Positions 22,032 through 56,136 of a DNA stretch of 64,000 nucleotides are shown here, piece after piece. Each line of letters starts with the position of its first letter. The stretch's first letter is position 1. The stretch is from Glycomyces harbinensis (lineage in GTDB: Bacteria > Actinomycetota > Actinomycetes > Mycobacteriales > Micromonosporaceae). The stretch is from assembly GCF_900101745.1 (NCBI RefSeq), contig NZ_FNAD01000006.1, positions 124,001 through 188,000 on the forward strand, read 5' to 3'. The notes beneath the pieces were generated by a model. That model worked only from the letters and a program-made list of their open reading frames with translations, did no database searches and was not told the DNA's origin. A program made the translations under genes and the position numbers.

Positions 22032-23210
22032 GTGTTGCGATGGATGACAGCTGGAGAATCACACGGACCCGAACTCGTGGTCACGCTCGACGGCCTGCCC
22101 GCCGGGATCGAGCTGACCACCGGCGATGTGGCGGCCGAACTCGCCCGCCGGCGGCTCGGTTACGGCCGCGGCGCCCGCATGAAGTTCGAGGCCGACGCCG
22201 TCAGCTTCATCGGCGGCCTGCGCCACGGCCGCACCCTCGGCTCTCCCGTCGCCATCCGCGTCGGCAACTCCGAGTGGCCCAAGTGGGAGACCGTCATGGC
22301 CGCCGACCCGGTCGACCCCGCCGAACTCGCCGGGATCGCCCGCAACGCCCCCCTGACGCGGCCCCGCCCCGGCCACGCCGACCTCGCCGGGATGCAGAAG
22401 TACGACCACGAGGACGCCCGCCCGATCCTCGAGCGCGCCTCCGCCCGCGAGACCGCCGCGCGCGTCGCCGGCGGGACCGTCGCCAAGGCCTTCCTCAAGC
22501 AGGCCTTCGGCATCGAGATCGTCTCCCACGTCAAGGCCCTCGGCCCCGTCCGCGCCAAGGAGGGCCTCGTCCCCACCCCCGCCGACTTCGCGGCGGTCGA
22601 CGCCGACCCGCTGCGCTGCATGGACCCCGACGCCTCCGCCCGCATGGTCGCCGAGGTCGACGCCGCGAAGAAGGACGCCGACACCCTCGGCGGCGTCGTC
22701 GAAGTCCTCGCCTACCACCTCCCGCCCGGGCTCGGCTCGCACGTCCAGTGGGACCGCAAGCTCGACGCCCGCCTCGCCACCGCCCTCATGTCGATCCAGT
22801 CGGTCAAGGCCGTCGAGATCGGCGACGGCCTCATGCAGGCCTCGGTGCGCGGCTCCTCCGCGCACGACGAGATCGTGCCCGGCCCCGACGGCGTCCAGCG
22901 CCTCACCGACCGCGCCGGCGGCCTCGAAGGCGGCATCACCACCGGCCAGCCGCTGCGCGTCTCGGCCATGCTCAAGCCCATCTCGTCGCTGACGCGCCCC
23001 CTGCGCACCATCGACACCGTCACCGGCGAGGCCACCGAGGCGATCAACCAGCGCTCGGACGTGTGCGCGGTCCCGGCCGGGGCCGTCGTCGCCGAGCACA
23101 TGGTCGCCTACGTGCTCGCCGAAGCGGCCCTGGAGAAGTTCGGCGGCGACTCCGTCCCCGAATCCCGCCGCAACTTCGCGAACTACCTCGAGAACCTGCG
23201 GGTGCGCTAG
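22032..23210 (+). CDS. aroC: Chorismate synthase
   Basis: 392 aa. It converts EPSP to chorismate with reduced FMN, the last step of the shikimate pathway. Signatures are [13 protein letters not shown] at the start, [48 protein letters not shown] (in parts) and [12 protein letters not shown] 22032 gives [10 protein letters not shown], the usual start. No ribosome site; CAGACT 7 nt upstream suggests a leaderless mRNA. The TAG stop abuts the ATG of the next gene. Confidence 0.97.
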
Positions 23211-43400: not shown

Positions 43401-45923
43401 TCAACGTAGCGCTTCGGGGGCGGTGAGGGACGCCAGTTCGTGGCGTTCATAGGTGCCCAGTGATGCGTGGATCCGGAGGGCTTCGGCCCACTGGGTCCGG
43501 GCGCGCTCGGTGTCGCCGGCGGCCGCGAGGGCGTTGCCGAGGCCGTGGCGGGCCCTGGCCTCCTCGTAGGCGTCGGGTGCCGCCTCGGCGAGGTCGATCG
43601 CCTCGCGGTGGAGTCGTTCGGCGGCCGCCGGGTCGCCGCAGGCGAGGTGCGCGAAACCGGCGTTGTTGAGGACTTCGAGTCGCAGCTCCACGCTTGGGAC
43701 GGCGGCGGTCGCGTCGAGGGCGTGTTCGGCGAGCGCGACGGCGTCGGCGGCTCGGCCCTGGCGGGCGCGGACGTGGGAGAGGCGGCTGCGGATGAAGGCC
43801 TCGCCGAACGCGTCCCCGGACTGGTGGTACGCCTCGAGCGCCTGGTCGAGCAGTTCGCCCGCGGCGTCGGGCTCGTCCTGGCGCAGGCGCAGCAGTGCGA
43901 GGCCGGCGAGCGCCGCGGCGAGGTTCTGGCCCCAGCCGCGGTCGGCGAAGGTCTTCACGGACCGCTCGAAGCCGGATTCGGCGTTGTCGTGGTCGCCGAT
44001 GAGCAGGTCGAGGTGGGCGATGTCGTCGAGGGCGTTCATCTCGCGGTCGGCGTCGCCGAGGTCGCGGAAGCCTTCGGCGGCTTCGGTGGCGCATTCGCGG
44101 GCTTCGGCGAGCCGCCAGCGTTCGAGGTGGCACCAGCCGATGGCGCCGAGGGCGAGGAGTGCCGCCATGGGGTCGTCGTTGGCGAGGGCGAGGCTGCGGG
44201 ACTCGGCGAGGCTCAGGTGGGCGCCGTCGATGTCGCCGAGGGCCCGTTGCGTGTTGCCGATCTGGTGGAGGACCGTGGCCTGGTGCGGCCGGTCGCCGAG
44301 GGCGCGGTCGGCGTCGAGGGCGATGCCGAGGTTGACGAGGGCTTCGGCGCGCTGGCCGCGCGTGTACTGGTAGCGCCACAGGGTGGTCGCGAGTCGGCCC
44401 GCGTGCCACTGGTGCCCGTCCTCCGAGGCCTGTCGGATCATCTCGGCCAGGGCGCCCTGGCGGGTGTCGAGCCATCGGATCGCGTCGTCGGCGCCGTCGA
44501 ACGCCGGTGCGGGGACGGCGGTCTCGGGAGCGGCCTCGGGGTCGAGTCCGAACAGGAGCGTCAGCGTCTCCGCCGCGACGGCCAGGTGCCAGTCGTAGAG
44601 GCGACCCAGCGCCTCTTCGCGGTCGGGCGCGTCGGCGGCCTGTTCGCGGGCGTAGGCGCGGACGAGGTCGTGGACGCTCCAGCGGCCTTCGGCGGTCGGG
44701 GAGGCGAGGTGGACGGTGGCGAGGCTCCGGAGCGCGGAGTCGGCCTCGGCCGGGTCGGCGCCGGTGAGGGCGGCGATGCCGGCGGGCTCGAATTCGGTGG
44801 CCGGGTGGAGGCCGATCGCGTTGAGGGCCTTGCGGTCGGCCGGTGCCAGGCGGTCGCGGGTGAGGTCGAGGCAGGCGCGCAGGCCGGCGGCTTCGTCGCC
44901 GGGGAGGTCGAGGTTCGCCAGGGGTGCTCCGGCGATGCGGTCGCGCAGGTCGCCGAGGGGCTGCCCGGGGCGGGCGAGGGTCTGGCAGGCGGCCAGGCGC
45001 AGGGCGAGCGGGAGGTCGCCGCAGGCGGCGGCGAGGCCGCGGGCGGCCTCGGGGTCGGCGGCGACGCGTTCGCGTCCGATCATGGCGCCCAGGAGGTCCA
45101 TGGACGCCTCGCGGGTGAGGGGTTCGAGGCGCAGGTGGGGGACGCCGTGGGTGGCGGTGAGTCCGAACAGGTCGGTGCGGGCGGTGATGAGGGCGGTCGA
45201 GCCCCCGGTGCCGGGGAGGAGGTCGCGCAGCTGCTCGGGGCTGCGGGCGTTGTCGAGGACGACCAGGACGCGGCGGTGGCTCAGGAGCGAGCGGTACATC
45301 GCGGCCCGCTCGTCGCCGTCCGGCGGGATCTCCTCGGGGTCGGTGCCGAGCGCGGCGAGGAATCGGTGGAGGACGGGCTCGGGGCCGAGCGGGGCGCTGC
45401 CGGAGAAGCCGCGGAGGTCGATGTAGAGCTGGCCGTCGGGGAAGGCGTCGAGGGCGCGGTGGGCCCAGTGGAGGGCGAGCGCGGTCTTGCCGACCCCGGC
45501 GGGACCGGCGATGACGACCGCTCGCGGCGAGGCGTCGCGGGTGTGCCGGTCGATCTGGCGCAGTTCGCGTTCGCGGCCGGTGAAGGCGTGGGGCGCGGGC
45601 GGGAGCCGGCGGGGGACCTGGCCGGTGTCGGCGACGTCGGCGGCGGCGATGCGCCCGCACTGGGCGAGCCAGGTGTCGACGGCGGCCTCGTCGCCGCCGC
45701 AGGCGCGGACCAGGGCGGCGACGACTTCGGCGCGGGGGATCGAGTCGCGGTTGAGGACGGCGGCCAACGTGCTGGTGGGGAGCCAGTCGCCGTGGTCGCG
45801 GGCGCGGCGACTGATCTCGCGGATGCTCAGGCCGGAGGCGGCGCGCAGCTCTCTGAGCAGGGCCACCAGCTGGGGGGCCGAGCCGGCCGCCGAGGGGTCG
45901 AGGCCGTCGAGGGAATGACGCAC
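43401..45923 (-). CDS. STAND-type regulator: XRE helix-turn-helix, NB-ARC, TPR
   Basis: 840 aa. Residues 17-80 form an XRE-like DNA-binding domain (LVALLRELRAASGLSIREIS). NB-ARC follows with P-loop GPAGVGKT (140-147), Walker B RRVLVVLDNA, sensor LITARTDLFGL and GDLPLAL. The C-terminal half is TPR repeats rich in A, L and R. Such signal-transducing NTPases act as switch-like regulators of antibiotic or developmental genes. GTG 45923 is chosen because TAGACT ends 7 nt upstream (leaderless) and the domain begins soon after; a longer frame upstream is rich in Pro/Arg and lacks a ribosome site. Its NB-ARC is related to that of the regulator at 53719. Confidence 0.85.
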   Translation of the reverse strand: MRHSLDGLDPSAAGSAPQLVALLRELRAASGLSIREISRRARDHGDWLPTSTLAAVLNRDSIPRAEVVAALVRACGGDEAAVDTWLAQCGRIAAADVADTGQVPRRLPPAPHAFTGRERELRQIDRHTRDASPRAVVIAGPAGVGKTALALHWAHRALDAFPDGQLYIDLRGFSGSAPLGPEPVLHRFLAALGTDPEEIPPDGDERAAMYRSLLSHRRVLVVLDNARSPEQLRDLLPGTGGSTALITARTDLFGLTATHGVPHLRLEPLTREASMDLLGAMIGRERVAADPEAARGLAAACGDLPLALRLAACQTLARPGQPLGDLRDRIAGAPLANLDLPGDEAAGLRACLDLTRDRLAPADRKALNAIGLHPATEFEPAGIAALTGADPAEADSALRSLATVHLASPTAEGRWSVHDLVRAYAREQAADAPDREEALGRLYDWHLAVAAETLTLLFGLDPEAAPETAVPAPAFDGADDAIRWLDTRQGALAEMIRQASEDGHQWHAGRLATTLWRYQYTRGQRAEALVNLGIALDADRALGDRPHQATVLHQIGNTQRALGDIDGAHLSLAESRSLALANDDPMAALLALGAIGWCHLERWRLAEARECATEAAEGFRDLGDADREMNALDDIAHLDLLIGDHDNAESGFERSVKTFADRGWGQNLAAALAGLALLRLRQDEPDAAGELLDQALEAYHQSGDAFGEAFIRSRLSHVRARQGRAADAVALAEHALDATAAVPSVELRLEVLNNAGFAHLACGDPAAAERLHREAIDLAEAAPDAYEEARARHGLGNALAAAGDTERARTQWAEALRIHASLGTYERHELASLTAPEALR

Positions 45924-46245
45924 GTCACCGAGTCTACCGAGGACGGTCTCGGTGCGGGGTCCCTGTCCCGGACGTTCCGGGACACCCGCAGCCATTGCCC
46001 CGCTTGCACATCGGTGGTGGACTCGAACCGTCCCCGAAGGCCGCGACGGAACGCGCCGATGGGAAACCGGTGAGAAACCCGGGCCGGGGGTGTGGGAACA
46101 CCCGGCCCGACCCACCCTCTCCCGGCCGCCCCGCGTCCGCTGCGCGGCGCGGCCGGGAGGGCTCTTCGGGCGAACGATGAGTTTCGGCCCGCCGACTCGT
46201 CCTAACTGATGCAATCAGAGGACCCGTTCGGAAGGACCAGCGATC
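45924..46245. other. 322-bp divergent intergenic region with two GC-rich hairpins
   Basis: No gene. Two inverted repeats, 46080-46109 (CGGGCCGGG/CCCGGCCCG) and 46119-46159 (CTCCCGGCCGC/GCGGCCGGGAG), sit upstream of both flanking genes, so they are not terminators of either. The -10 of the regulator gene is at 45931-45936. Confidence 0.6.
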
Positions 46246-46813: not shown

Positions 46814-48064
46814 GTGAACGACCGCTGGCACAATGGCCCCGTGCGCCTCCTCGCCCCGCTCTGGTCCCGGGCCACCTACCGCGGGTGGGTCTGGATGATC
46901 CTGGGCGGCGCGCTGATGATGCCGTTCATGATGGTCGGCGCCGTCTTCTACAACTGGCGCCACCCCCAGAGCGGCTTCGACGGCGTCATCCACCCCACCG
47001 TCTACGTCGGCGTCATCCCGCTCGTCGCCGCCGTCTCCCTGCTCCTGCCCGACCGCGAGGTCGAGCGCACCGCCGCCCGACGCCTCCTGGACGCCCAGTT
47101 CGCCTCGCCCGACGACGGCACCTGGAACACGCGCTGGCGCACCGGCTGCTGGTTCACCCTCCACGCCGCGATCGGCGGCCTCCTCAGCGGCGTCACCCTC
47201 GCCATGGTCCCCTTCGCCGCGTACCTCGCCTACTACGGCGCGCTCCTGGCGCTGGGCCGGATCGACCGGGCGCCGGACCTGTACTGGGGCTGGTTCGTCG
47301 AGTGGGGCGCGCTCACCGGGCCGCTCCTCCTGGTCGTGCTCGTCGCGCTCATCGCCGCCGCCACCGCGGGCATGAGGGCCCTGGCCCCGCTGCTGCTGGG
47401 CCAGAGCGCCGCCGACCGGCTGGCCGCCTCCAGTGCCGAGTCCGCGCGGCTGGCCGCCCGCAACCGCATCGCCCGGGAGCTGCACGACTCGGTCGGCCAC
47501 GCCCTGTCGGTCGTCGTCGTCCAGTCCGAGGCCGCCGCCCGCCTCATCGAGTCCGATCCGGCCTTCGCGGCCAAGGCGATGAACGCCGTCGGCGAGACCG
47601 CCCGCGGCGCGCTCGCCGAGCTCGACGCCGTCATCGGGGCACTGCGCGAGGACCGGGACGGCGCCCGCGGCCCTCAACGCGACCTCGCCGACCTTCAGGC
47701 GCTCGCCGACGAGTCGGGCGTCGAGACCGACCTCCAGCTCACCGGCGACGCTGACGCGTTGAGCCGCTTGGCCTCCCGCGAGATCTACCGGATCGTCCAG
47801 GAGTCGCTGACGAACGTGCTGCGCCACGCCGACGAGCCGCGCGCCACGGTGGTGGTCGCGGTGGGGGAGCGGGAGTGCACCGTCACCGTCACCAGCCCCG
47901 CCGCCCGCCGGCCCCGCCGCGGCACCGGGAAGGGCGGGCGCGGCCTCATCGGGATGGCCGAGCGCGCCGCCGTGCTCGGCGGGACCGCCGAGGCATCATG
48001 GGCTCCGGGACGGTGGACCGTCCTGGCCGCCGTGCCGCTCGAAACCGGAAAGGCCGAGGAATGA
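46814..48064 (+). CDS. Sensor histidine kinase (NarL/DesK-type, HisKA_3)
   Basis: 416 aa. Four to five membrane helices in the first 190 residues with no large extracellular sensor domain. H224 in RIARELHDSVGHALSVV is the phosphoacceptor. HATPase follows, with VQESLTNVLRHA and GRGLIGMAERAAVLGG. GTG 46814 has GACACT ending 6 nt upstream, so it may be leaderless. It overlaps the response regulator by 4 bp. Ligand unknown. Confidence 0.9.
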   Translation: MNDRWHNGPVRLLAPLWSRATYRGWVWMILGGALMMPFMMVGAVFYNWRHPQSGFDGVIHPTVYVGVIPLVAAVSLLLPDREVERTAARRLLDAQFASPDDGTWNTRWRTGCWFTLHAAIGGLLSGVTLAMVPFAAYLAYYGALLALGRIDRAPDLYWGWFVEWGALTGPLLLVVLVALIAAATAGMRALAPLLLGQSAADRLAASSAESARLAARNRIARELHDSVGHALSVVVVQSEAAARLIESDPAFAAKAMNAVGETARGALAELDAVIGALREDRDGARGPQRDLADLQALADESGVETDLQLTGDADALSRLASREIYRIVQESLTNVLRHADEPRATVVVAVGERECTVTVTSPAARRPRRGTGKGGRGLIGMAERAAVLGGTAEASWAPGRWTVLAAVPLETGKAEE

Positions 48065-48702
48065 CCGCACCGCTGCGCATCGCCCTGATCGACGACGAGG
48101 CGCTGATCCGCTCCGGATTCGCCGCCATCATCGGCGCCGAACCGGACCTCGAGGTCGTCGCCGAGGGCGCCGACGGGGTGGACGCGCTCACCATCGCCCG
48201 CTCCGGCAAGGCCGACGTGCTGCTCATGGACGTCCGGATGCCGAAGGTCGACGGCATCGCGGCGACCGAGCGGATCGTGTCCGAACTGGACCGGCCCCCG
48301 AAGATCCTGGTGGTCACCACGTTCGACAACGACGACTACGTGTGGCAGGCGCTGCGCGCCGGAGCCGACGGGTTCCTGCTCAAGCGCACCCGCCTCGAAG
48401 ACCTGCTGGCGGCCGTGCGGCTCGTGGCCCGCACCGACGCGCTCCTGTTTCCCGAAGCGGTCCGCCGCCTCGCCGCCGCCGCACCCAAACGCAAGCCCCC
48501 CAAGGGGATCGGCGATCTGAGCGACCGCGAGCGCGAGGTCCTGACCCTCGCGGCCCGCGGCCTGTCGAACGCCGAGATCGCGGCCGAGCTGTTCCTCGGC
48601 CGCGAAACCGTCAAGACCCACCTGAGCAGCGTCTACACCAAGCTGACCGTCCGCGACCGCACGCAGGCCGTGATCGCGGCCTACGAAGGCGGCCTCGTCT
48701 GA
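48061..48702 (+). CDS. Response regulator, NarL/FixJ family
   Basis: 213 aa. Receiver domain with D57 in LLMDVRMPKVDG and acidic pair DDE at 11-13. LuxR-type helix-turn-helix (about 150-205) with LSDREREVLTLAARGLSNAEIA (in parts) and RETVKTHLSSVYTKL. Partner of the kinase just upstream (ATGA overlap). Converges on the type VII-like genes with 10 bp between. Confidence 0.93.
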   Translation: MTAPLRIALIDDEALIRSGFAAIIGAEPDLEVVAEGADGVDALTIARSGKADVLLMDVRMPKVDGIAATERIVSELDRPPKILVVTTFDNDDYVWQALRAGADGFLLKRTRLEDLLAAVRLVARTDALLFPEAVRRLAAAAPKRKPPKGIGDLSDREREVLTLAARGLSNAEIAAELFLGRETVKTHLSSVYTKLTVRDRTQAVIAAYEGGLV

Positions 48703-48712
48703 GGCGGGGCGA

Positions 48713-49150
48713 CTACGCCTCGAAGACCGTGGCGGAACCACCCTCGGCCGCGGAGCCGTCGACGATGACCGTGCCGTCCGAGAGGGCCCCGCCGAGGACC
48801 GTGCCGCCCTCCGTTCCACCGTCCACTTCGGTCGTGGCGGCCGCGAACGCCGTCGTCGCCTCGTCGTCGGCCTCGCCGCCGCCGACCGCCGCCTCGGCCA
48901 GCGACGCCTCCATCCCGTGCAGGGTCCCCCGCAGGTACTGGAGGTTCCGCCATGTGGCGGCGTGGAACTCCTGATACCTCCCGGCGGCGTTCTCGGCCGC
49001 GCCCGGCGCGGTCCCGAACGCCGGGGCCCGGCTCAGCGTCCCGGTGCCGAGCACCGGCACCACCTGGTTCTCGAGCGTGTCGATGAGCCCCAGCAGAAAC
49101 AGCCGGTACTCCTCGATCGCCTCGGGGTCGAACACCCGCTCCTGCGCCAT
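48713..49150 (-). CDS. Small helical protein of type VII-like locus
   Basis: 145 aa. Two helices (about 8-34 and 48-88: YQEFHAATWRNLQYLRGTLH) then a Gly/Ala/acidic tail, a PE- or partner-protein layout. No exact WXG motif (TWRN at 66-69). ATG 49150 follows AAGGAGG. It lies 14 bp after the 547-aa gene, so both are cotranscribed and may form a dimer. Confidence 0.65.
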   Translation of the reverse strand: MAQERVFDPEAIEEYRLFLLGLIDTLENQVVPVLGTGTLSRAPAFGTAPGAAENAAGRYQEFHAATWRNLQYLRGTLHGMEASLAEAAVGGGEADDEATTAFAAATTEVDGGTEGGTVLGGALSDGTVIVDGSAAEGGSATVFEA

Positions 49151-49164
49151 TGCGCGCCTCCTTG

Positions 49165-50808
49165 CTAGATGTAGGGGTCGTCGCCGGGCTTGACGTAGCC
49201 CCAGACGTTGTCGATCTCGCGGAAGGTGAGGTCCTCGTCCTCCGCCTCTTCGTCCTCTTCGGACTTCTCGGAGCGCTTGCGGGCGTCGGCCTGCTGACCG
49301 CCCACGACCGCGGTCCGCGAGCCGACGCCGCCGCCGGAACCGGAGCCGCCGGCGGCCGCCGGGCCGGTCGTCCCGGTCGCGCCGAGCATCCCCGGCGCCG
49401 CCGCGCTGTAGACCGAACCGCCGCCGGCCACCGCGCCGCCCGCGGTCACCGGCGCGGTCGTCATCGACCCGCCCGCGCCGCCGAACCCGAAACCGCCGCC
49501 TCCGCCGGCGAGGCCGCCGGAGACCGCGCCGTCCACGGGCGCCGACTCCTCCGGCGCCGTCGCGGCCGCTTCGGCGTCCTCGGCCCGAACCGATCCGTCC
49601 CCGCCCGGCGGGACCGGGCTCGGGTCCTGGGTCGCCTGCGGCGCCACCGGCGAGGCCGGCTGCTCCATCGACGGCGGCTCCAAGTCCATGTAGGACGTGT
49701 CCGCGCCGTCCGGATACGGACGGTCGGACCCGGTGGCGCTCAACGCCTCCAGCTGCTCGCTCTGGCCCGTCCGCTTCTCGACGATCGACTCGTCGATCGC
49801 GGCGTGCCGCTCGGTGTACCCGGCCACCTCGGCCGCGATGCGGTCGGCGAAGGCCGTCGCGGCCTCCGCTCCCGCCTGCAATCGCTCTGGCGGCAAGACC
49901 CCCGCGACCGGCTCCAGCGCGCCACCCGACCGCTGCCCGATGAACGTCCGGACCTCCTCGGCCAGCGCGGGGTCCGCGCCGCCGAGCTCGAGCGCCCGCT
50001 CGGCCTCCTCGCAGGTCATGAGGATGCAGTCGCCGTGCCACCAGCCGGGCCTGACGTGGATCGCGACCAGGCTCGTCCACCCGCCCTCGGCGCCGACCAT
50101 CGGCGCGGGGTAGGGGATCTCGCCGGAGTCGCCGCCCTGGAGCGTGTAGATCGCCTCCTCGCGGTGCTTGAGGTCCCCGGTGGCGTCCTCGATGTCGTCG
50201 AGCACGCCCTGGAGGAGCGTGCGGACCTGGTCGGTCTGGTCGGCGAACGCGTCGAAGTCCGTTCCCGCCCATCCGGTCGACAGCTCCGCGAGCTTCGACT
50301 TGATCAGGCCCGGCCAGTCGCCGATGATCCCGGCGACCTCCTCGTTCCACCCGGTGCGCAGGCGCTGCAGCGAGAACGCGTCCGGGTCGATGGGTCGCAC
50401 CGCGCCCACCGCCGAGCGGAAGTCGTCCTCGGTCGGATAGGACATCCCCTCGCAGCGGGGCTTGAACCGGCCCAGCTGCCCCTCGACCGGCACGGCCGAG
50501 ACCAGCTGCTCCCAGTCGGTCTCGGCCGGGTGCGCCGCCGGGTGCGGGCAGGCGCCCGCGGTGCACCCGGCCCGCGCCCCGCCGGGATCGGCCGTGTCGC
50601 CGAAGGCGATGGTCGAGCTGGCGGTCGCGGTCTCCATGTCCGCGTAGGCCGTGTCGTCGTACTCGAACGCCGCGTCCTCGTCGGCGGCGCCGTAGTCCTC
50701 GGCGGGCGCGTCGTAGGCCGTCCCGATGTCGGCCTCGGTGAGCGTCACGTACTCCGAGCCCGCGTCGCCTTCGGCGGCCGAGCCCTCGATGAAACCCGCG
50801 TCGGTCAT
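49165..50808 (-). CDS. WXG-domain protein with Gly-rich linker and VWG...DDPY C terminus (type VII-like)
   Basis: 547 aa. An acidic Asp/Glu/Tyr-rich N terminus (1-70), then a helical region (about 125-215) with W180-A-G182 in LSTGWAGTDFDAFA, the WXG turn of ESX substrates. A middle domain (215-380) has a WWHGDCILMTCEEAE segment. A Pro/Ala then Gly-rich disordered stretch (about 385-500) leads to a charged KRSEKSEEDEEAEDEDLTF stretch and the end NVWGYVKPGDDPYI. ATG 50808 with GGGAGG. The C-terminal signature is shared with the 457-aa protein. Confidence 0.7.
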   Translation of the reverse strand: MTDAGFIEGSAAEGDAGSEYVTLTEADIGTAYDAPAEDYGAADEDAAFEYDDTAYADMETATASSTIAFGDTADPGGARAGCTAGACPHPAAHPAETDWEQLVSAVPVEGQLGRFKPRCEGMSYPTEDDFRSAVGAVRPIDPDAFSLQRLRTGWNEEVAGIIGDWPGLIKSKLAELSTGWAGTDFDAFADQTDQVRTLLQGVLDDIEDATGDLKHREEAIYTLQGGDSGEIPYPAPMVGAEGGWTSLVAIHVRPGWWHGDCILMTCEEAERALELGGADPALAEEVRTFIGQRSGGALEPVAGVLPPERLQAGAEAATAFADRIAAEVAGYTERHAAIDESIVEKRTGQSEQLEALSATGSDRPYPDGADTSYMDLEPPSMEQPASPVAPQATQDPSPVPPGGDGSVRAEDAEAAATAPEESAPVDGAVSGGLAGGGGGFGFGGAGGSMTTAPVTAGGAVAGGGSVYSAAAPGMLGATGTTGPAAAGGSGSGGGVGSRTAVVGGQQADARKRSEKSEEDEEAEDEDLTFREIDNVWGYVKPGDDPYI

Positions 50809-50980
50809 GCCGGTGCGCCTCCCTCGTTCCTGGTGGTGCGCCAATGAAAGAGCGGTCCGCCACGGATTCGCCTCAACTTCGCTCCAGGCGGGTCGGGACG
50901 GGTCTGGAGCGGCGGGGTGCACATTGCACTGGAGGCCCCGGGCGCGTCCCGGGCGCGCGGCACATCGGAGGAGGAACGGG
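50809..50980. promoter_or_regulatory. 172-bp divergent promoter region of the type VII-like locus
   Basis: It serves the 547-aa/145-aa unit (minus) and the 115-aa/457-aa unit (plus). No clear -35/-10 boxes or operator were seen. A common regulator is possible. Confidence 0.5.
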
Positions 50981-51328
50981 ATGACCGTGTTCATGAAAGT
51001 GGAGCAGGTCCGCGGCGGCGGCGCGGACCTGCGGACCCTCGCGCCGGGGGCCCGCCGGGCCTCCGAGCGCGTGCGGGCCCCCGCCGAGAGCGCCGCGTCG
51101 GGGAACGCCGGGTTCCTCACCGGCCAGGCGGGCGTGCAGTGGCAGGCGGCGCTCGGCACCGTCACCGAGGGCGTCGAGCGGCGCGTCGAATGGCAGGGCG
51201 CGCAGGTCACCGGCAGTGCCGACGACCTCGACGGCACCGACCGCAGCGTCGGCGGCGACATCGAATCGATCGGACGCGACCTGCCTGTGCGGCGGCCGAG
51301 CCAGGAGGACCCCCATGCCCAGCTATGA
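50981..51328 (+). CDS. Small EspC/WXG-like protein of type VII-like locus
   Basis: 115 aa, two helices joined at W71-Q-G73 (RRVEWQGAQVTGSADDL), after VEQVRGGGADLRTLAPGARR. This is the size and layout of DUF2580/EspC and WXG100 proteins that travel through ESX systems. ATG 50981 follows GGAGGAGG. It overlaps the 457-aa gene by 14 bp, pointing to a paired product. Confidence 0.65.
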   Translation: MTVFMKVEQVRGGGADLRTLAPGARRASERVRAPAESAASGNAGFLTGQAGVQWQAALGTVTEGVERRVEWQGAQVTGSADDLDGTDRSVGGDIESIGRDLPVRRPSQEDPHAQL

Positions 51329-52688
51329 CGAGGCGCTGGCCGCGAACCCGGCGGGGTTCGTCGACTACGCCGCGGAGATGACTTCGGCCGGCACCGACCT
51401 GACCGACCACCAGGGCGAGTACGACGCGGTGGTCACGACCATCAACGCCGACTGGCAGGACGAGGCGAACGCCGCGTTCAACGAGGACGTCGACACGGTG
51501 GGCGCCCATGTGGGCGACGTGGTCTCGCAGGTCGACCAGGCCGCCGAGCTGCTGAGCACCGGCGGCGGGCACATGGTGTCCCAAGTGGAGCAGTTGAGGG
51601 CGACGGACGCGGCCTACCGCGGCGCCGGGTTCGACGTGCAGTCCGAGCCGCGGGTCGAACTGGGCGCCGTGCACTGGGCGGCGATCGCGGCCGCCGGGCC
51701 GTTCGGGCCCGTGCTCCGGGCCCTGTTCCAGGCCCGCGCCGACGAGGGGACGACGCAGCTCCAGCTCGGCCTGGCGGTGCTCACCGCGACCGACGTCGCC
51801 ACCGGCGCCGGTCTGACCGCGGCCGCCGAGCAGCTCGAGCCCCTGGAGGACAAGGGCGGCCCCGGCAACACGGTCTGCCCGCCGGCGGTCGACGAGAAGC
51901 CCGACCGGAACGAGTCGAACACCAAGGACGAGAACGGCACCGCGAAGAAGACCGGCGGCGACGAGAAGGACGGGAAGGACGGGAAGGACGAGAACAAAGA
52001 GGGGAACAAGGACGAGAAGGACGAGAAGGACGGCGAGAAGGACGAGAAGCCGAAGGAGGAGGACCCGGCCGACCCCGACCGGCAGGACCAGGCGCCCCGG
52101 AACCCGGAGGCCGAGCAGCCCCGGAACGAGACGCCCGGCATGGTCGAGCCCGACCCGGGCCCGGCCGACGTGCCCGGCTACGAGAGCCCCGAGCTGAGCG
52201 CGCCCGAAATCCCCGATTACGAGAGCGACTGGGACCCCAGTGAACTCGGCGGTGCCGAGCTCCCGACCGGCGGACTGGCCGGAGGCGGCGGCATCGGTTC
52301 GGGCGGCGGTCTCTCCGGCGGCGGCACCGGCGCGCCCGACCTCCCGCTCGGCGCCCCCGGCGGCGCTTCCGGCGGCGTCTTCGCCGCCCCGGGCGCGGGC
52401 GCCGCACCCGTGGGCGCGACCGGCGCCGGGGCCAGGACCGGCGCGGGCGGCTTCATGGGCGCTCCCGGCGCCCGCGGCGCGAACGTCGCCGACGACGAGG
52501 TCGAACGCGAATCGTTCCTGCTCGAGGACCCCGACGAGGATGTGTGGGGCATCGGCACCGACAAGGACAACCCCTACGTCGACTACCAGGGCGAACGCCC
52601 CGGCGAGAGCGGTCCGCCGCCGCTGGACGAGATCCCTCCGTTCACCCTTCCCGGCTTCGACCTGCCTTCCGACCAGAACCCCAGGTAG
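51315..52688 (+). CDS. WXG-like protein with K/D/E repeat linker, Gly-rich region and VWG...DNPY motif
   Basis: 457 aa. N-terminal helices (1-110) with W47-Q-D49 (INADWQDEANAAF), a WXG-like turn. A charged low-complexity linker of EKDGKDGKDENKEG type (about 190-265) follows, then Pro-rich and Gly/Ala-rich segments. The tail has RESFLLEDPDEDVWGIGTDK with DNPYV at 419-423 and a Pro-rich end. ATG 51315 with CAGGAGG. The motif matches the end of the 547-aa protein, but here about 35 residues follow it. Confidence 0.68.
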   Translation: MPSYDEALAANPAGFVDYAAEMTSAGTDLTDHQGEYDAVVTTINADWQDEANAAFNEDVDTVGAHVGDVVSQVDQAAELLSTGGGHMVSQVEQLRATDAAYRGAGFDVQSEPRVELGAVHWAAIAAAGPFGPVLRALFQARADEGTTQLQLGLAVLTATDVATGAGLTAAAEQLEPLEDKGGPGNTVCPPAVDEKPDRNESNTKDENGTAKKTGGDEKDGKDGKDENKEGNKDEKDEKDGEKDEKPKEEDPADPDRQDQAPRNPEAEQPRNETPGMVEPDPGPADVPGYESPELSAPEIPDYESDWDPSELGGAELPTGGLAGGGGIGSGGGLSGGGTGAPDLPLGAPGGASGGVFAAPGAGAAPVGATGAGARTGAGGFMGAPGARGANVADDEVERESFLLEDPDEDVWGIGTDKDNPYVDYQGERPGESGPPPLDEIPPFTLPGFDLPSDQNPR

Positions 52689-52711
52689 TCGTAATCCGGC
52701 CCGCTCGCCGC

Positions 52712-52760
52712 GACGCCGGGCCCTCCGGAGGCGACCCCGCTGTCCGGAGGGCCCGGCGTC
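52712..52760. terminator. Bidirectional terminator between type VII-like and YbaB-family genes
   Basis: 18-bp perfect stem (52712-52729 with 52743-52760) and 13-nt loop between converging genes. Confidence 0.88.
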
Positions 52761-52887
52761 TTGCGAGCGGACGGCCACCTCGCCGTGGACTCCCCGACGC
52801 CCCCGGCCAGTGCCCGTTCCGTGCACCACTAGGCGCACACCGCTCGGCCCGCCGCCCCTCACGGGGCAGCGGGCCGGTCCGCTTCCG

Positions 52888-53562
52888 TCAGCGCGCCGTG
52901 GACGCCACCAGTGCCGCCAGGCGATCGGCCGCCCACTGCTGCGCCGTCCCGATCACCGCGGACGCCTCCGCGGCCAACTGCTCGTACTCGGTGTCCACGG
53001 TGACGTTCGGGACCGTGAACGTGAACGCCGTCAGCCGCCCCGCCAGCGTCACCTCGACCTCGCACACGTCGTCCTCCCCGCCGCCGGCCGTGAACCGCTC
53101 CGGCGACCGCGCCACCCACTCCCGCAGGTCCGCCGAACGCGGATCGGGCGCGCACCGCGCGAGCAGGTCCGCGCCGATCCGCTCGGCGCGCATCACGTGC
53201 TCGGCGCGCGCCGCCTCGGCCGCTTCCCACGCCGCCTCGATCGCCTTCGCCACCGCCTTGCCGCTCATGCGGTCCACCGTGGGGCTCAGCGCCAGCGACC
53301 CCAGCCGCCCCGTGTAGTCCAGCCGCAGCCACACCACCCGGCCGGCGTCGGTGCCGTCGAATCCGGCGCCCATCAGCTGCGCGGCGATCGCTCCCGCCCG
53401 CACCGCCGCCTCGGCCGCCGCCGCGACCCGCTCGCGCGTCGGCGCCTCCGACAGGACCCGCACCGCGTGGTCGCGCATCGGGCCCTCCGGCAGCCGCTCG
53501 GCGGCGGCTCGCGCCGCCGCGAGGCGGTCCTCGTATCCCTCCGGGATCGCGATCTTGTCCAT
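52888..53562 (-). CDS. YbaB/EbfC family protein
   Basis: 224 aa. The central part (GRLGSLALSPTVDRMSGKAVAKAIEAAWE, in parts) has the beta-hairpin/helix pattern of YbaB nucleoid proteins. Longer members such as EspL occur in ESX loci of mycobacteria. ATG 53562 is 9 nt after AGGAGG; GTG 53571 overlaps the site. Probably a partner or chaperone of the type VII-like proteins. Confidence 0.7.
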   Translation of the reverse strand: MDKIAIPEGYEDRLAAARAAAERLPEGPMRDHAVRVLSEAPTRERVAAAAEAAVRAGAIAAQLMGAGFDGTDAGRVVWLRLDYTGRLGSLALSPTVDRMSGKAVAKAIEAAWEAAEAARAEHVMRAERIGADLLARCAPDPRSADLREWVARSPERFTAGGGEDDVCEVEVTLAGRLTAFTFTVPNVTVDTEYEQLAAEASAVIGTAQQWAADRLAALVASTAR

Positions 53563-53651: not shown

Positions 53652-53707
53652 CTGAACACCGGCTGCCGTTGTGGGACACTGGAGTCCCCTCCTTTTCAGC
53701 GCTGAAA
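53652..53707 (+). promoter_or_regulatory. Promoter and 14-bp palindrome of the SARP gene
   Basis: CTGAAC (53652-53657) and GACACT (53675-53680) with 17 bp between are a probable promoter. TTTCAGCGCTGAAA (53694-53707) is a perfect palindrome just after the start site, 11 bp before the ATG. It is a good place for a repressor or autoregulation. Confidence 0.65.
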
Positions 53708-53718
53708 GCGATGACGCC

Positions 53719-56136
53719 ATGACCCTCGACGTGCGCCTCCTCGGACCCCTGGAGGTCCGCGTGGACGGCCGCACCGCCGCGATCCCGAGGGGCAACGCCA
53801 CCACCGTCCTCACCCTCCTGCTCGACGACGCCGGGAAAGTGGTCCCCGTCAGCGGCCTGGTCGCGGGCGTCTACGCCGACGACCTCCCGCTCGACCCCGA
53901 AGCCCAGATCCAGAACACCGTCGGCGTCCTGCGCCGCCAGCTCGGCCCCGCCCGCGACCGCATCGAGACCGTCGGCCGCGCCTACCGCTTCCGCATCGAC
54001 GAGACCGAACTCGACACCCTGCGCTGCAAGGCGAAAGAAGCCCTCGCCCGCAAGCTGCGCCGCGAGGGCGGCAGCGAGAAGGCCGCCGAGGTCCTCCGCG
54101 AGGCCCTCGCCGAATGGCGCGGACCCGCGCTCGCCGACCTGCCCGGCAGCGTCGCCGGCGCCATCGGCCGCCGCCTCGACGAATACCGGCTGACCCTCCT
54201 CGAACAGCGCATCGACGCCGACATCGAGACCGGCCGCGCCCCCGGCGCCGTCCAGGAACTGCGCCAGCTCCTCGCCGTCCACGACACCCGCCAGCGCCTC
54301 GTCGCCCTCCTCATGCGCGCCCTCCACGCCTGCGGGCGCACCGCCGAAGCCCTCGCAGCCTTCGCCGACCTCAAAGAGCGGCTCGCCGACGCCCTCGGCG
54401 CCGACCCCAACCGCGAACTGGTCGACCTGCACACCGCGATCCTGCGCGACCAGACCGCCGAGCCCGCGCCCGCCGACGCGCCCGAACCCGCGCCCGCCGT
54501 CCCCGCCCCCGCGATGCTCCCGCGCACCACGCCCCGCTTCACCGGCCGCGAGAGCGAGATCCGCGCCCTGGACCGGTTCCTCATGGACGCCGGCTCGGAG
54601 GCCGGACTGGCCGCCGTCACCGGCATGGGCGGCGCCGGCAAGACCGCGACGGCCGTCCGCTGGGCCCACCGGGTCGCCCACCGCTTCCCCGACGGGCAGC
54701 TCTACTTCAACCTGCGCGGCTTCGACCCCACCGCGCCCGCCGCCGACCCCGAGGCCGTCCTCGGCGAAGCCCTCGCCGCGCTCGGGGCGACGCGCCCGCC
54801 GGCCCGCCTCGACGAGCGGGTCGGCCTCTACCGCACCCTCCTCGCCCGGCGCCGCGTCCTCATCGTGCTCGACAACGCCCGCGACGCCGCGCACGTCAGG
54901 CCCCTCCTGGCCACCGCCCCCGGCAGCTTCACCATCGTCACCAGCCGCGACCGGCTCGTGGGCCTCGACATGCACGAAGGCGCCGAGACCGTCCCGCTCG
55001 GCCCGCTGACCGCGGCCGAATCCGAAGCGCTGCTGGCCCGGCGGATCGGGCCCGAGCGGGCCGCCGCCGACCGCGCGTCCGTCGCCCGGATCGCCGCGGC
55101 CTGCGGCGGACTCCCCTTGGCGCTCACGCTCGTCGGCTCCTGGGCCGCGGCCGACCCCGGCCTGGCCCTCGGCGCCCTCGCCGACCGGTTCGACGCCTCG
55201 CCCGACGTGCTCGGCGTCCTCGTCGCCTCCGACACCGCCTCCGATCTGCGCACCGTCTTCGACAGCTCCTACCAGCTGCTGGGGGAGCGGGACGCGTTCG
55301 CGTTCTGCCTGTTCGGCCTGCACCCCGGGCCCGAGATGACGCCCGCGGCCGCGGCCAGCCTCATGGGCGCCGAGCCCGGCGAGGCCCGCGCGGCGCTGGC
55401 CGAACTCGCCGAGTCCAACCTGGTCGACCGGCTCCCCGGCGACCGCTACGCGATGCACCGCCTGCTGCGCGACTACGCCGCCGAGTGCTTCGCCGACGAA
55501 GTGCTCGCCGCCGACCGGCAGGCGGCGGCCCTGCGGATGGTCGAGCACTACCTGTACGCCGCGCACCGGGCCGACCGGTTCCCCGCGGGCGGCCACCGGG
55601 TCGACCTCGGCCCGGCGGCGCCCGGCGTCCACATCGAACCGATCGCCGACGTGAAGGCCGCGGCCGCCTGGTTCGCCGCCGAGCACCCGGTCCTGCTCGG
55701 ACTGGCGGGGACCGAGGGCGGCTTCCAGGCCGACCTGCGGGTCTGGCAGCTCGGCTGGATCCTGGCCGAGCGGCTGCTCGACCGCGGCGCCGCCCGCGAA
55801 CTACTGGCGGTCCAGCGCTCGGCGCTGGCGGCCGCCGAACGCCGCGGCGGCGCGTTCGAGCGGGCGGTCTCCTTGGGCTACTTGGGGTTCGCGCACGCCG
55901 AACTCGGCGACGCCGACCGCGCCCGCGAGTGCGCCGAGCGGGCCGCGGCCCTGGCCGAAAGGGACGGCGGGACCTGGGCCCGCGGCTTCGCGGCCTACAC
56001 GCGGGCGAAGACCGGCGCCGCCGAGCACGCCCGCCTCGCCAAGGACCTGTTCCGCAGCGTGCAGGACCGGCTGTGGGAGCGACGGGCCGCCGAACTCGTG
56101 GCCCAGGCCCGCAACGCCGCCGACGACCGCGCGTAA
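53719..56136 (+). CDS. AfsR/SARP-type regulator with BTAD and NB-ARC domains
   Basis: 805 aa. OmpR-like DNA-binding domain (1-93: MTLDVRLLGPLEVRVDG, GVLRRQLG), then the BTAD (95-245: LAEWRGPALADLPG). NB-ARC (about 272-560) has P-loop GMGGAGKT (302-309), RRVLIVLDNA and CGGLPLALTLVG. A winged-helix region MHRLLRDYAAECF and a short TPR end (about 640-790) complete it. AfsR-like proteins activate secondary metabolism or development. No biosynthetic genes are adjacent; the type VII-like genes are the nearest possible targets. Confidence 0.9.
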   Translation: MTLDVRLLGPLEVRVDGRTAAIPRGNATTVLTLLLDDAGKVVPVSGLVAGVYADDLPLDPEAQIQNTVGVLRRQLGPARDRIETVGRAYRFRIDETELDTLRCKAKEALARKLRREGGSEKAAEVLREALAEWRGPALADLPGSVAGAIGRRLDEYRLTLLEQRIDADIETGRAPGAVQELRQLLAVHDTRQRLVALLMRALHACGRTAEALAAFADLKERLADALGADPNRELVDLHTAILRDQTAEPAPADAPEPAPAVPAPAMLPRTTPRFTGRESEIRALDRFLMDAGSEAGLAAVTGMGGAGKTATAVRWAHRVAHRFPDGQLYFNLRGFDPTAPAADPEAVLGEALAALGATRPPARLDERVGLYRTLLARRRVLIVLDNARDAAHVRPLLATAPGSFTIVTSRDRLVGLDMHEGAETVPLGPLTAAESEALLARRIGPERAAADRASVARIAAACGGLPLALTLVGSWAAADPGLALGALADRFDASPDVLGVLVASDTASDLRTVFDSSYQLLGERDAFAFCLFGLHPGPEMTPAAAASLMGAEPGEARAALAELAESNLVDRLPGDRYAMHRLLRDYAAECFADEVLAADRQAAALRMVEHYLYAAHRADRFPAGGHRVDLGPAAPGVHIEPIADVKAAAAWFAAEHPVLLGLAGTEGGFQADLRVWQLGWILAERLLDRGAARELLAVQRSALAAAERRGGAFERAVSLGYLGFAHAELGDADRARECAERAAALAERDGGTWARGFAAYTRAKTGAAEHARLAKDLFRSVQDRLWERRAAELVAQARNAADDRA

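What the first reader, a model, noticed from the sequence alone, without database searches (positions are those of the whole stretch)
48713..53562. Orphan type VII-like substrate locus with a shared C-terminal VWG...D(D/N)PY signature
Two divergent two-gene units each pair a small helical protein (145 and 115 aa) with a long WXG-type protein (547 and 457 aa), plus a YbaB/EbfC-family gene. The long proteins differ in most of their length. Yet both pass through a Gly-rich disordered linker and an acidic stretch to the same signature: NVWGYVKPGDDPYI in one, DVWGIGTDKDNPYV in the other. A shared tail signature in otherwise different proteins suggests a recognition signal for export or for a common partner. 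No EccC-type ATPase or other ESX core gene is in the window, so the locus is an orphan.
Basis: partly seen in the sequence, partly recalled or inferred. Interest (0 to 1): 0.75.

Follow-up and report, generated by a model that had tools for sequence, protein, structure and literature searches.

The report
Dispersed ESX substrate pairs, shared tail
A bacterium of the genus Glycomyces carries, away from its type VII secretion machine, paired genes for predicted secreted proteins that end in a similar short tail with an invariant Trp-Gly; relatives of these pairs sit beside the machine in other bacteria, so the tail may be an address label or docking tag for export.

Summary
Five genes lie at 48713-53562 of a Glycomyces genome: two divergent small+long pairs and a YbaB-type gene. 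The long proteins have different N-domains but share a Gly-rich linker and a tail. The tail is the Glycomyces form of a wider actinobacterial motif, TWLxEDDDVWG. In other genera tail-bearing long genes often lie beside EccC: 39 of 93 listed tail hits are within 15 kb of a listed EccC, about 1.3% expected. The Glycomyces genome has an ESX core on another contig, so only the locus is an orphan. Predicted folds show WXG-type hairpins; the 457-aa N-domain best matches PPE proteins. The ESX-linked small partners examined carry the export motif YxxxD/E; 86 of 91 Glycomyces small partners lack it. Best reading: dispersed type VIIa substrate pairs, organised like espACD, whose tail docks onto a common ESX component. 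That the tail is a recognition signal is inferred, not shown. I found no description of the motif in the open-access library searched.

The parts
48713..49150 (-). small partner (145 aa); family has P-x-F-G and W-x-N-x-Q-x-L-R motifs; homologous to small genes beside EccC in other genera
49165..50808 (-). long protein 1 (547 aa): N-terminal helical domain with a W-A-G hairpin, Gly-rich linker, C-terminal tail
49168..49233 (-). tail of long protein 1 (residues 526-547, DLTFREIDNVWGYVKPGDDPYI)
50809..50980 (.). space between the divergent units, presumed divergent promoter region (inferred; no promoter scan run)
50981..51328 (+). small partner 2 (115 aa), overlaps the next gene by 14 bp; no known family
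51315..52688 (+). long protein 2 (457 aa): PPE-like helical domain (about residues 1-180), charged and Gly-rich linker, tail
52503..52580 (+). tail of long protein 2 (residues 397-422, ERESFLLEDPDEDVWGIGTDKDNPYV)
52581..52685 (+). 35-residue extension after the tail, also present in the five closest orthologues (L031-L035), absent from L036-L046
52888..53562 (-). YbaB/EbfC-type protein (224 aa), candidate substrate chaperone

Best explanation
The locus encodes two substrate pairs of an actinobacterial type VII (T7SSa/ESX) secretion system, plus a YbaB-type protein that probably acts as their chaperone. The ESX machine that would export them is encoded elsewhere in the genome. In each pair a small helical protein is thought to bundle with the helical N-domain of the long protein. 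A flexible Gly-rich linker then presents a C-terminal tail (in full form W-L-x-E-D-x-D-V-W-G-...). Because the tail is kept on long proteins with different N-domains and on pairs encoded beside EccC in other genera, it most likely binds one constant component of the ESX machine, EccC being the first candidate. In ESX-linked pairs it would act together with the YxxxD/E motif of the small partner. In the dispersed Glycomyces pairs, most of which lack that motif, the tail would carry more of the targeting. Shown computationally: gene pairs, tail conservation, homology of the small partner to ESX-locus genes, linkage of the tail to EccC, an ESX core in the genome, predicted hairpins in the long proteins. 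Inferred: heterodimers, secretion, chaperoning, and the tail's binding partner.
For: ESX core in the same genome: EccCa/EccCb and EccD over NCBIfam cut-offs, EccB and two WXG100 genes over Pfam cut-offs. Linkage: 39 of 93 listed non-Glycomyces tail hits lie within 15 kb of a listed EccC, in 13 of 22 genera, against about 1.3% by random placement if a genome has 3.5 EccC in 8 Mb (from the truncated lists plus one row). ESX loci L172 and L175 have a small gene + long tail gene on both sides of the core. The small-partner profile hits small genes in five of the eight loci chosen beside EccC: L175 5.5e-6, L172 7.2e-6, L180 1.8e-4, L179 1.9e-19 and 2.6e-4, L174 0.0075. The 547-aa N-domain profile hits tail-bearing long proteins of other genera: L123 2.2e-41, L175 4e-9, L173 6e-9. 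73 of 76 related loci hold a small-partner gene. PPE proteins are the top 5 structural matches of the 457-aa N-domain. YxxxE sits at one alignment column in all five ESX-linked small genes aligned and as YLESD in a candidate small gene of the own core locus; 86 of 91 Glycomyces small partners have no YxxxD/E in the C-terminal part. YbaB-type ORFs lie near tail pairs in 24 of 76 related loci and in 5 of 10 fetched loci of other genera. Literature: YbaB-like EspH binds EspE; EspD, encoded in the espACD locus more than 260 kb from ESX-1, stabilises EspA/EspC (PMC6107294, passages).
Against: No secretion data. The tail is not needed for T7SSa in general: 26 of 28 EccC-positive genomes (E<=1e-100; 18 of them over the cut-off) in the phylum sample have no tail hit at E<=0.01. 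In the GTDB family sample EccC is in 150 of 150 genomes but the tail in 80, so presence/absence there carries no information. The own core-locus long protein has only a degenerate tail (RETWLREDDVDWS...). The window's own tails are divergent: a profile made without Glycomyces finds P0004 only below the best shuffled score and P0002 not at all. The small-partner profile finds nothing in three ESX loci (L171, L173, L176) and the second small genes of L172 and L175 are not hits either. In the one experimental parallel, loss of the acidic end of PPE68 blocked secretion of EspE, not of EsxA, which points to substrate docking rather than ATPase docking (PMC9765416, sections 7 and 11). Pfam WXG100 scores of both long proteins are below the curated cut-off.
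Confidence: 0.6

Rival explanations
1. The tail is a docking site for another co-secreted substrate (or for a partner pair), as proposed for the acidic C-terminus of PPE68, and not a signal read by the machine.
For: PMC9765416 (sections 7 and 11): PPE68 and its paralogue share an acidic C-terminal stretch in otherwise dissimilar C-terminal domains; removing the last 10 residues blocks EspE but not EsxA secretion. Tail genes occur on both sides of the ESX core in L172 and L175.
Against: The tail occurs on many paralogues with different partners, which favours a constant binder; whether the PPE68 end is homologous was not tested at residue level.
Confidence: 0.25
2. The tail acts after export: it is cleaved off by a mycosin or helps surface assembly, in the manner of the C-terminal processing of EspB.
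For: A mycosin-like gene lies in the own ESX locus (223.7 bits, cut-off 278.75); mycosin trims the C-terminal region of EspB (PMC9811218, passages); a long flexible linker precedes the tail.
Against: Conservation is concentrated in the tail rather than in the linker where a cut would fall.
Confidence: 0.15
3. The tail is the binding site for the YbaB-type chaperone.
For: YbaB-type ORFs recur beside tail pairs; YbaB-like EspH binds the substrate EspE (PMC6107294, passages).
Against: A YbaB-type ORF was found in only 24 of 76 related loci (flanks of 6 kb or less, so a lower bound).
Confidence: 0.12
4. The proteins are cytosolic helical proteins unrelated to type VII secretion and the tail is a chance or low-complexity acidic end.
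For: Pfam scores below cut-off; low-complexity linkers; no secretion data; weak independent profile scores for the window's own tails.
Against: Tail-EccC linkage, homologous small partners in ESX loci, PPE-like fold, WG kept in 69 of 69.
Confidence: 0.05

Closest known systems
espACD locus of mycobacteria (orphan ESX-1 substrate locus with the YbaB-like EspD)
   Same: Long + small substrate genes with a YbaB-type gene, away from the ESX core
   Different: P0001-P0004 do not hit the Pfam EspA/EspE or EspC models at E<=10; here two divergent pairs, several copies per genome and a conserved tail
PE/PPE substrate pairs
   Same: Small gene upstream of an overlapping long gene (unit 2); the 457-aa N-domain folds like PPE15/PPE41; dispersed copies away from the core
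   Different: No PE or PPE motif by reading, no Pfam PE or PPE hit for P0003 or P0004, no tyrosine in the 115-aa partner
PPE68 acidic C-terminal stretch
   Same: Conserved acidic C-terminus on otherwise dissimilar C-terminal domains; needed for secretion of another substrate (PMC9765416)
   Different: Residue-level relation not tested; the six genomes of the same order but another family in the phylum sample, each with 3-4 EccC matches, give no tail hit
EspB
   Same: Helical PE/PPE-type N-domain, flexible C-terminal region, ESX-1 substrate (PMC9811218, passages)
   Different: Only a Gly-rich linker match (E 1.8e-4, probably composition; by my count of profile positions it ends before the tail); tail profiles find nothing in the PDB; P0002 and P0004 do not hit the Pfam EspB PPE model
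WXG100 family (EsxA/EsxB)
   Same: W-x-G (P0002) or W-x-D (P0004) at the hairpin turn of the predicted models
   Different: Four to five times longer, with linker and tail; below family cut-offs

Membership tests
T7SSa substrate (WXG100 superfamily, broad sense) | helical hairpin with W-x-G at the turn | tested here: met
   AlphaFold2 models of both long N-domains (pLDDT 82.9 and 90.7); P0004 has W-x-D, not W-x-G; Pfam WXG100 scores sub-threshold; the small partners were not folded
T7SSa substrate (WXG100 superfamily, broad sense) | YxxxD/E export motif at the end of the helical hairpin of one partner | tested here: not met
   absent from the C-terminal part of 86 of 91 Glycomyces small partners, P0001 included; P0003 has no tyrosine; none within 100 residues after the W in 17 P0004-type domains; 15 of 40 P0002-type domains have a match there, but not P0002 itself
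T7SSa substrate (WXG100 superfamily, broad sense) | ESX membrane machinery in the genome | tested here: met
   EccC, EccD, EccB over cut-offs on C33; 16 of 16 genomes of the genus have EccC over the cut-off; EccE not searched
T7SSa substrate (WXG100 superfamily, broad sense) | EccC-dependent export | not testable with these tools
   needs secretion assays
PE/PPE | PE and PPE sequence motifs at the N-termini | tested here: not met
   translations (by reading); no Pfam PE or PPE hit for P0003 or P0004
PE/PPE | PPE fold | tested here: met
   P0004 residues 1-185: top 5 Foldseek hits are PPE15/PPE41 chains, prob 1.00, E 3.5e-3 to 1.3e-2, TM 0.51-0.61; no hit below 1e-3. P0002: no whole-domain match
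EspACD-type orphan substrate locus | long + small + YbaB-type gene unlinked to the ESX core | tested here: met
EspACD-type orphan substrate locus | sequence homology to EspA/EspC/EspD | tested here: not met
   no Pfam EspA_EspE or EspC hit for P0001-P0004 at E<=10; EspD not compared
YbaB/EbfC | match to PF02575 | tested here: met
   10 of 12 members of the orthologue set, best E 8.9e-11; P0005 itself none

The most novel reading that the evidence does not exclude
The C-terminal W-L-x-E-D-x-D-V-W-G tail is a so far undescribed second address signal of actinobacterial type VII secretion. It works beside YxxxD/E in ESX-linked pairs and has taken over targeting in the dispersed Glycomyces pairs, so that substrates without a YxxxD/E motif can be recognised by their C-terminus alone.
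Probability: 0.35. Interest if true: 0.8.

Novelty: new variant of a known kind. Interest (0 to 1): 0.55.

Why it matters
How T7SSa picks its substrates is still open: PMC9811218 (passages) states that no interaction of the YxxxD/E and WxG signals with the machinery had been described. A short, portable tail found in 24 of 44 genera of one GTDB family (Glycomyces counted) gives a defined peptide to test against EccC, co-substrates and chaperones. Glycomyces, with several dispersed pairs and a single EccC match at E<=1e-100 in the window's genome, is a convenient organism for it. The tail also gives a handle for finding type VII substrates far from ESX loci in actinomycetes.

Tried and rejected
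Rejected or led nowhere: (1) EspB kinship from the PDB profile hit: the matched part is the Gly-rich linker and by my count ends before the tail, so I treat it as composition; tail profiles find no PDB chain at E<=10. (2) Co-occurrence of tail and EccC as proof: uninformative inside the GTDB family (EccC in 150 of 150) and thin at phylum level (tail in 2 of 246 genomes, both with EccC). I used distance on the chromosome instead. (3) A tail profile without Glycomyces as proof for the window's own two tails: weak for P0004, absent for P0002. (4) Region-wise conservation was computed on a gapped reference by mistake; one search repeats it correctly. (5) A fold match for P0002 as a whole: none. 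(6) A first small-partner alignment used a wrong frame for L011; left out, right frame. (7) Of 9 small genes counted in other genera, 8 matched YxxxD/E, but the two matches of L178 lie inside a helix and not at the motif column; where the 5 matching Glycomyces ones lie was not checked one by one. (8) The candidate small gene of the own core locus (L025) matches ESX-locus small partners only weakly (E 0.0092). (10) The start-of-linker motif count (82 of 101) used a loose pattern without a control. VIA-align was not available.
Full report
What is there. The window is part of contig C16 (124001-188000) of a 6.17 Mb, 35-contig genome. Related loci place it in Glycomyces: 75 of the 76 loci found in genome contigs are Glycomyces and one is an actinomycete MAG. 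The minus-strand unit is long (547 aa) then small (145 aa), 14 bp apart; the plus-strand unit is small (115 aa) then long (457 aa), overlapping by 14 bp; 172 bp separate the two units. The fifth gene (224 aa) belongs to the YbaB/EbfC family by its orthologues (10 of 12 members of the orthologue alignment hit PF02575, best E 8.9e-11), although the window's own copy hits nothing.

The block is not unique. The own genome holds a second copy of the block on contig C10: both long genes in the same divergent order, both small genes, the YbaB-type gene and the adjoining AfsR-like gene. Further long+small pairs lie on C12 (three long genes), C13 and C34. The block recurs in 16 other Glycomyces loci (L031-L046), in four of which (L037, L041, L042, L044) no YbaB-type gene was seen within the fetched flank. 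73 of 76 related loci hold a small-partner gene within the fetched stretch; the three without (L052, L058, L087) have the match near a contig end.

The tail. Of 76 loci, 69 have a complete end of the 547-aa-type ORF. The 457-aa protein carries the tail too: 16 of 16 orthologues have VWG and 13 the ..PY part. In the window and its five closest orthologues an extension of about 35 residues follows, which the next eleven lack. The two N-domains share only the hairpin (hhalign probability 26%), but both linkers begin with a GGLAGGGG element; 82 of 101 tail-bearing ORF ends have such a start-of-linker motif upstream (loose pattern, no control). The tail therefore seems to belong to a C-terminal module that sits on different N-domains.

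Outside Glycomyces. A 28-position tail profile finds hits in 29 of 61 genomes of the GTDB family at E<=0.1. A 21-position core profile finds them in 80 of 150 genomes and 24 of 44 genera at E<=0.01, Glycomyces included. There the motif reads TWLxEDDDVWG and ends in forms such as APGVLR, PPSVLG, or AVIGR plus about 35 residues; among the loci fetched, the DDPYA ending appears only in Glycomyces and in two other genomes (G013, G014). Ten tail proteins from other genomes, scanned against Pfam, give WXG100, WXG100_2, PPE, T7SS_signal, EspA/EspE or EspB-PPE matches, all below cut-off, or nothing from these families. One ESX-locus tail protein (L175 16076-17350) is over the cut-off for WXG100 and WXG100_2.

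Link to type VII secretion. All 16 sampled genomes of the genus have EccC over the curated cut-off. In the own genome EccC, EccD, EccB and two WXG100 genes over cut-off, a mycosin-like gene (223.7 bits, cut-off 278.75) and a WXG100_2-like long gene with a degenerate tail lie together on C33; EccE was not searched. In other genera, 39 of 93 listed tail hits lie within 15 kb of a listed EccC (30 of 56 genomes, 13 of 22 genera), against about 1.3% for random placement with 3.5 EccC in 8 Mb (the lists are truncated, so this is a rough figure). Two of the fetched ESX loci (L172, L175) have a small gene + long tail gene on each side of the core; L171 and L173 have at least one tail gene there. The profile of the Glycomyces small partner matches small genes in five of the eight loci chosen beside EccC (L172, L174, L175, L179, L180; E 0.0075 to 1.9e-19) and none in L171, L173, L176. 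The pairs in the window are thus best seen as dispersed relatives of a module that elsewhere sits beside the machine.

Export motif. In the five ESX-linked small genes that were aligned, YxxxE lies at one column (YRTTE, YHTTE, YKTAE, YRTAE, YDETE), and a gene next to the long gene of the own core locus reads YLESD there (weak homology, E 0.0092). In the printed rows the dispersed Glycomyces small partners have other residues at that column; 86 of 91 have no YxxxD/E in their C-terminal part. This is the observation behind the novel reading: the tail may have become the main address in the dispersed pairs.

Folds. AlphaFold2 gives good models for both N-domains (pLDDT 82.9 and 90.7) with W-x-G or W-x-D at the turn of a long hairpin. 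The five best structural matches of the 457-aa N-domain are PPE15 and PPE41 chains (prob 1.00, TM 0.51-0.61), though no hit passes E 1e-3. The 547-aa N-domain matches only EsxB-type hairpins, weakly. It also carries conserved cysteines.

How it most likely works. Small and long proteins form a heterodimer held ready by a YbaB-type chaperone, and the long partner's flexible C-terminus presents the tail to a constant component of the ESX machine, EccC being the first candidate. Precedents: YbaB-like EspH binds and is needed for EspE, and EspD, encoded in the espACD locus more than 260 kb from ESX-1, stabilises EspA/EspC (PMC6107294, passages); EspL also resembles YbaB (PMC6319747, passages); the acidic C-terminal stretch of PPE68 is conserved between paralogues with otherwise dissimilar C-terminal domains, and removal of the last 10 residues blocks EspE secretion while EsxA is still secreted (PMC9765416, sections 7 and 11). 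The last result fits co-substrate docking at least as well as machine docking, which is why the tail's partner stays open. YbaB-type ORFs lie near the tail pairs in 24 of 76 related loci and in 5 of 10 fetched loci of other genera.

Against this reading. There are no secretion data. By this profile the tail is absent from 26 of 28 EccC-positive genomes of the phylum sample, so it is not a universal T7SSa signal. The tails of the window's own two proteins are divergent members: a profile made without Glycomyces finds P0004 only at 9.3 bits, below the best shuffled score (11.3), and P0002 not at all.

Novelty. Searches of the open-access library for C-terminal signals or tails of type VII substrates (listings, plus passages or sections of five papers) did not turn up this motif; subscription papers and preprints were not covered. 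I class it as a new variant of a known kind: T7SSa substrate pairs with a so far unnamed common tail.

Noticed in passing
window 53671-56136 (+); L011 13925-16897 (+): A BTAD + NB-ARC regulator of AfsR type (BTAD E 4.9e-35, NB-ARC 4e-10) starts next to the YbaB-type gene; a gene with a similar start lies at the same place in the C10 copy, suggesting that the regulator was duplicated with the block.
   Followed up: partly
window 43401-46214 (-): A second large ORF with a similar NTPase-like and repeat-like region, by reading, on the other side of the locus.
   Followed up: no
window 46814-48702 (+): Histidine-kinase-like and response-regulator-like genes (by reading) end 10 bp from the 145-aa gene; possibly linked in regulation.
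   Followed up: no
L087 (Glycomyces salinus, near contig end): A 242-aa ORF in which the tail follows the helical domain directly, without the Gly-rich linker, and without a small partner found: a natural linker-less form or an assembly effect.
   Followed up: no
window 49165-50808 (P0002 residues 82, 87, 261): Invariant or nearly invariant cysteines in the N-domain family, suggesting a disulphide or a metal site.
   Followed up: no
L012 5952-7187 (-), 16415-17467 (-): Further WXG100_2-like and PPE-like genes, below Pfam cut-offs, beside the C12 pairs and two YbaB genes over the cut-off: a larger dispersed type VII substrate island.
   Followed up: partly
window 22068-22159 (-): ARAGORN calls a 92-nt tRNA-Ala(CGC) inside long ORFs; possibly spurious.
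   Followed up: no
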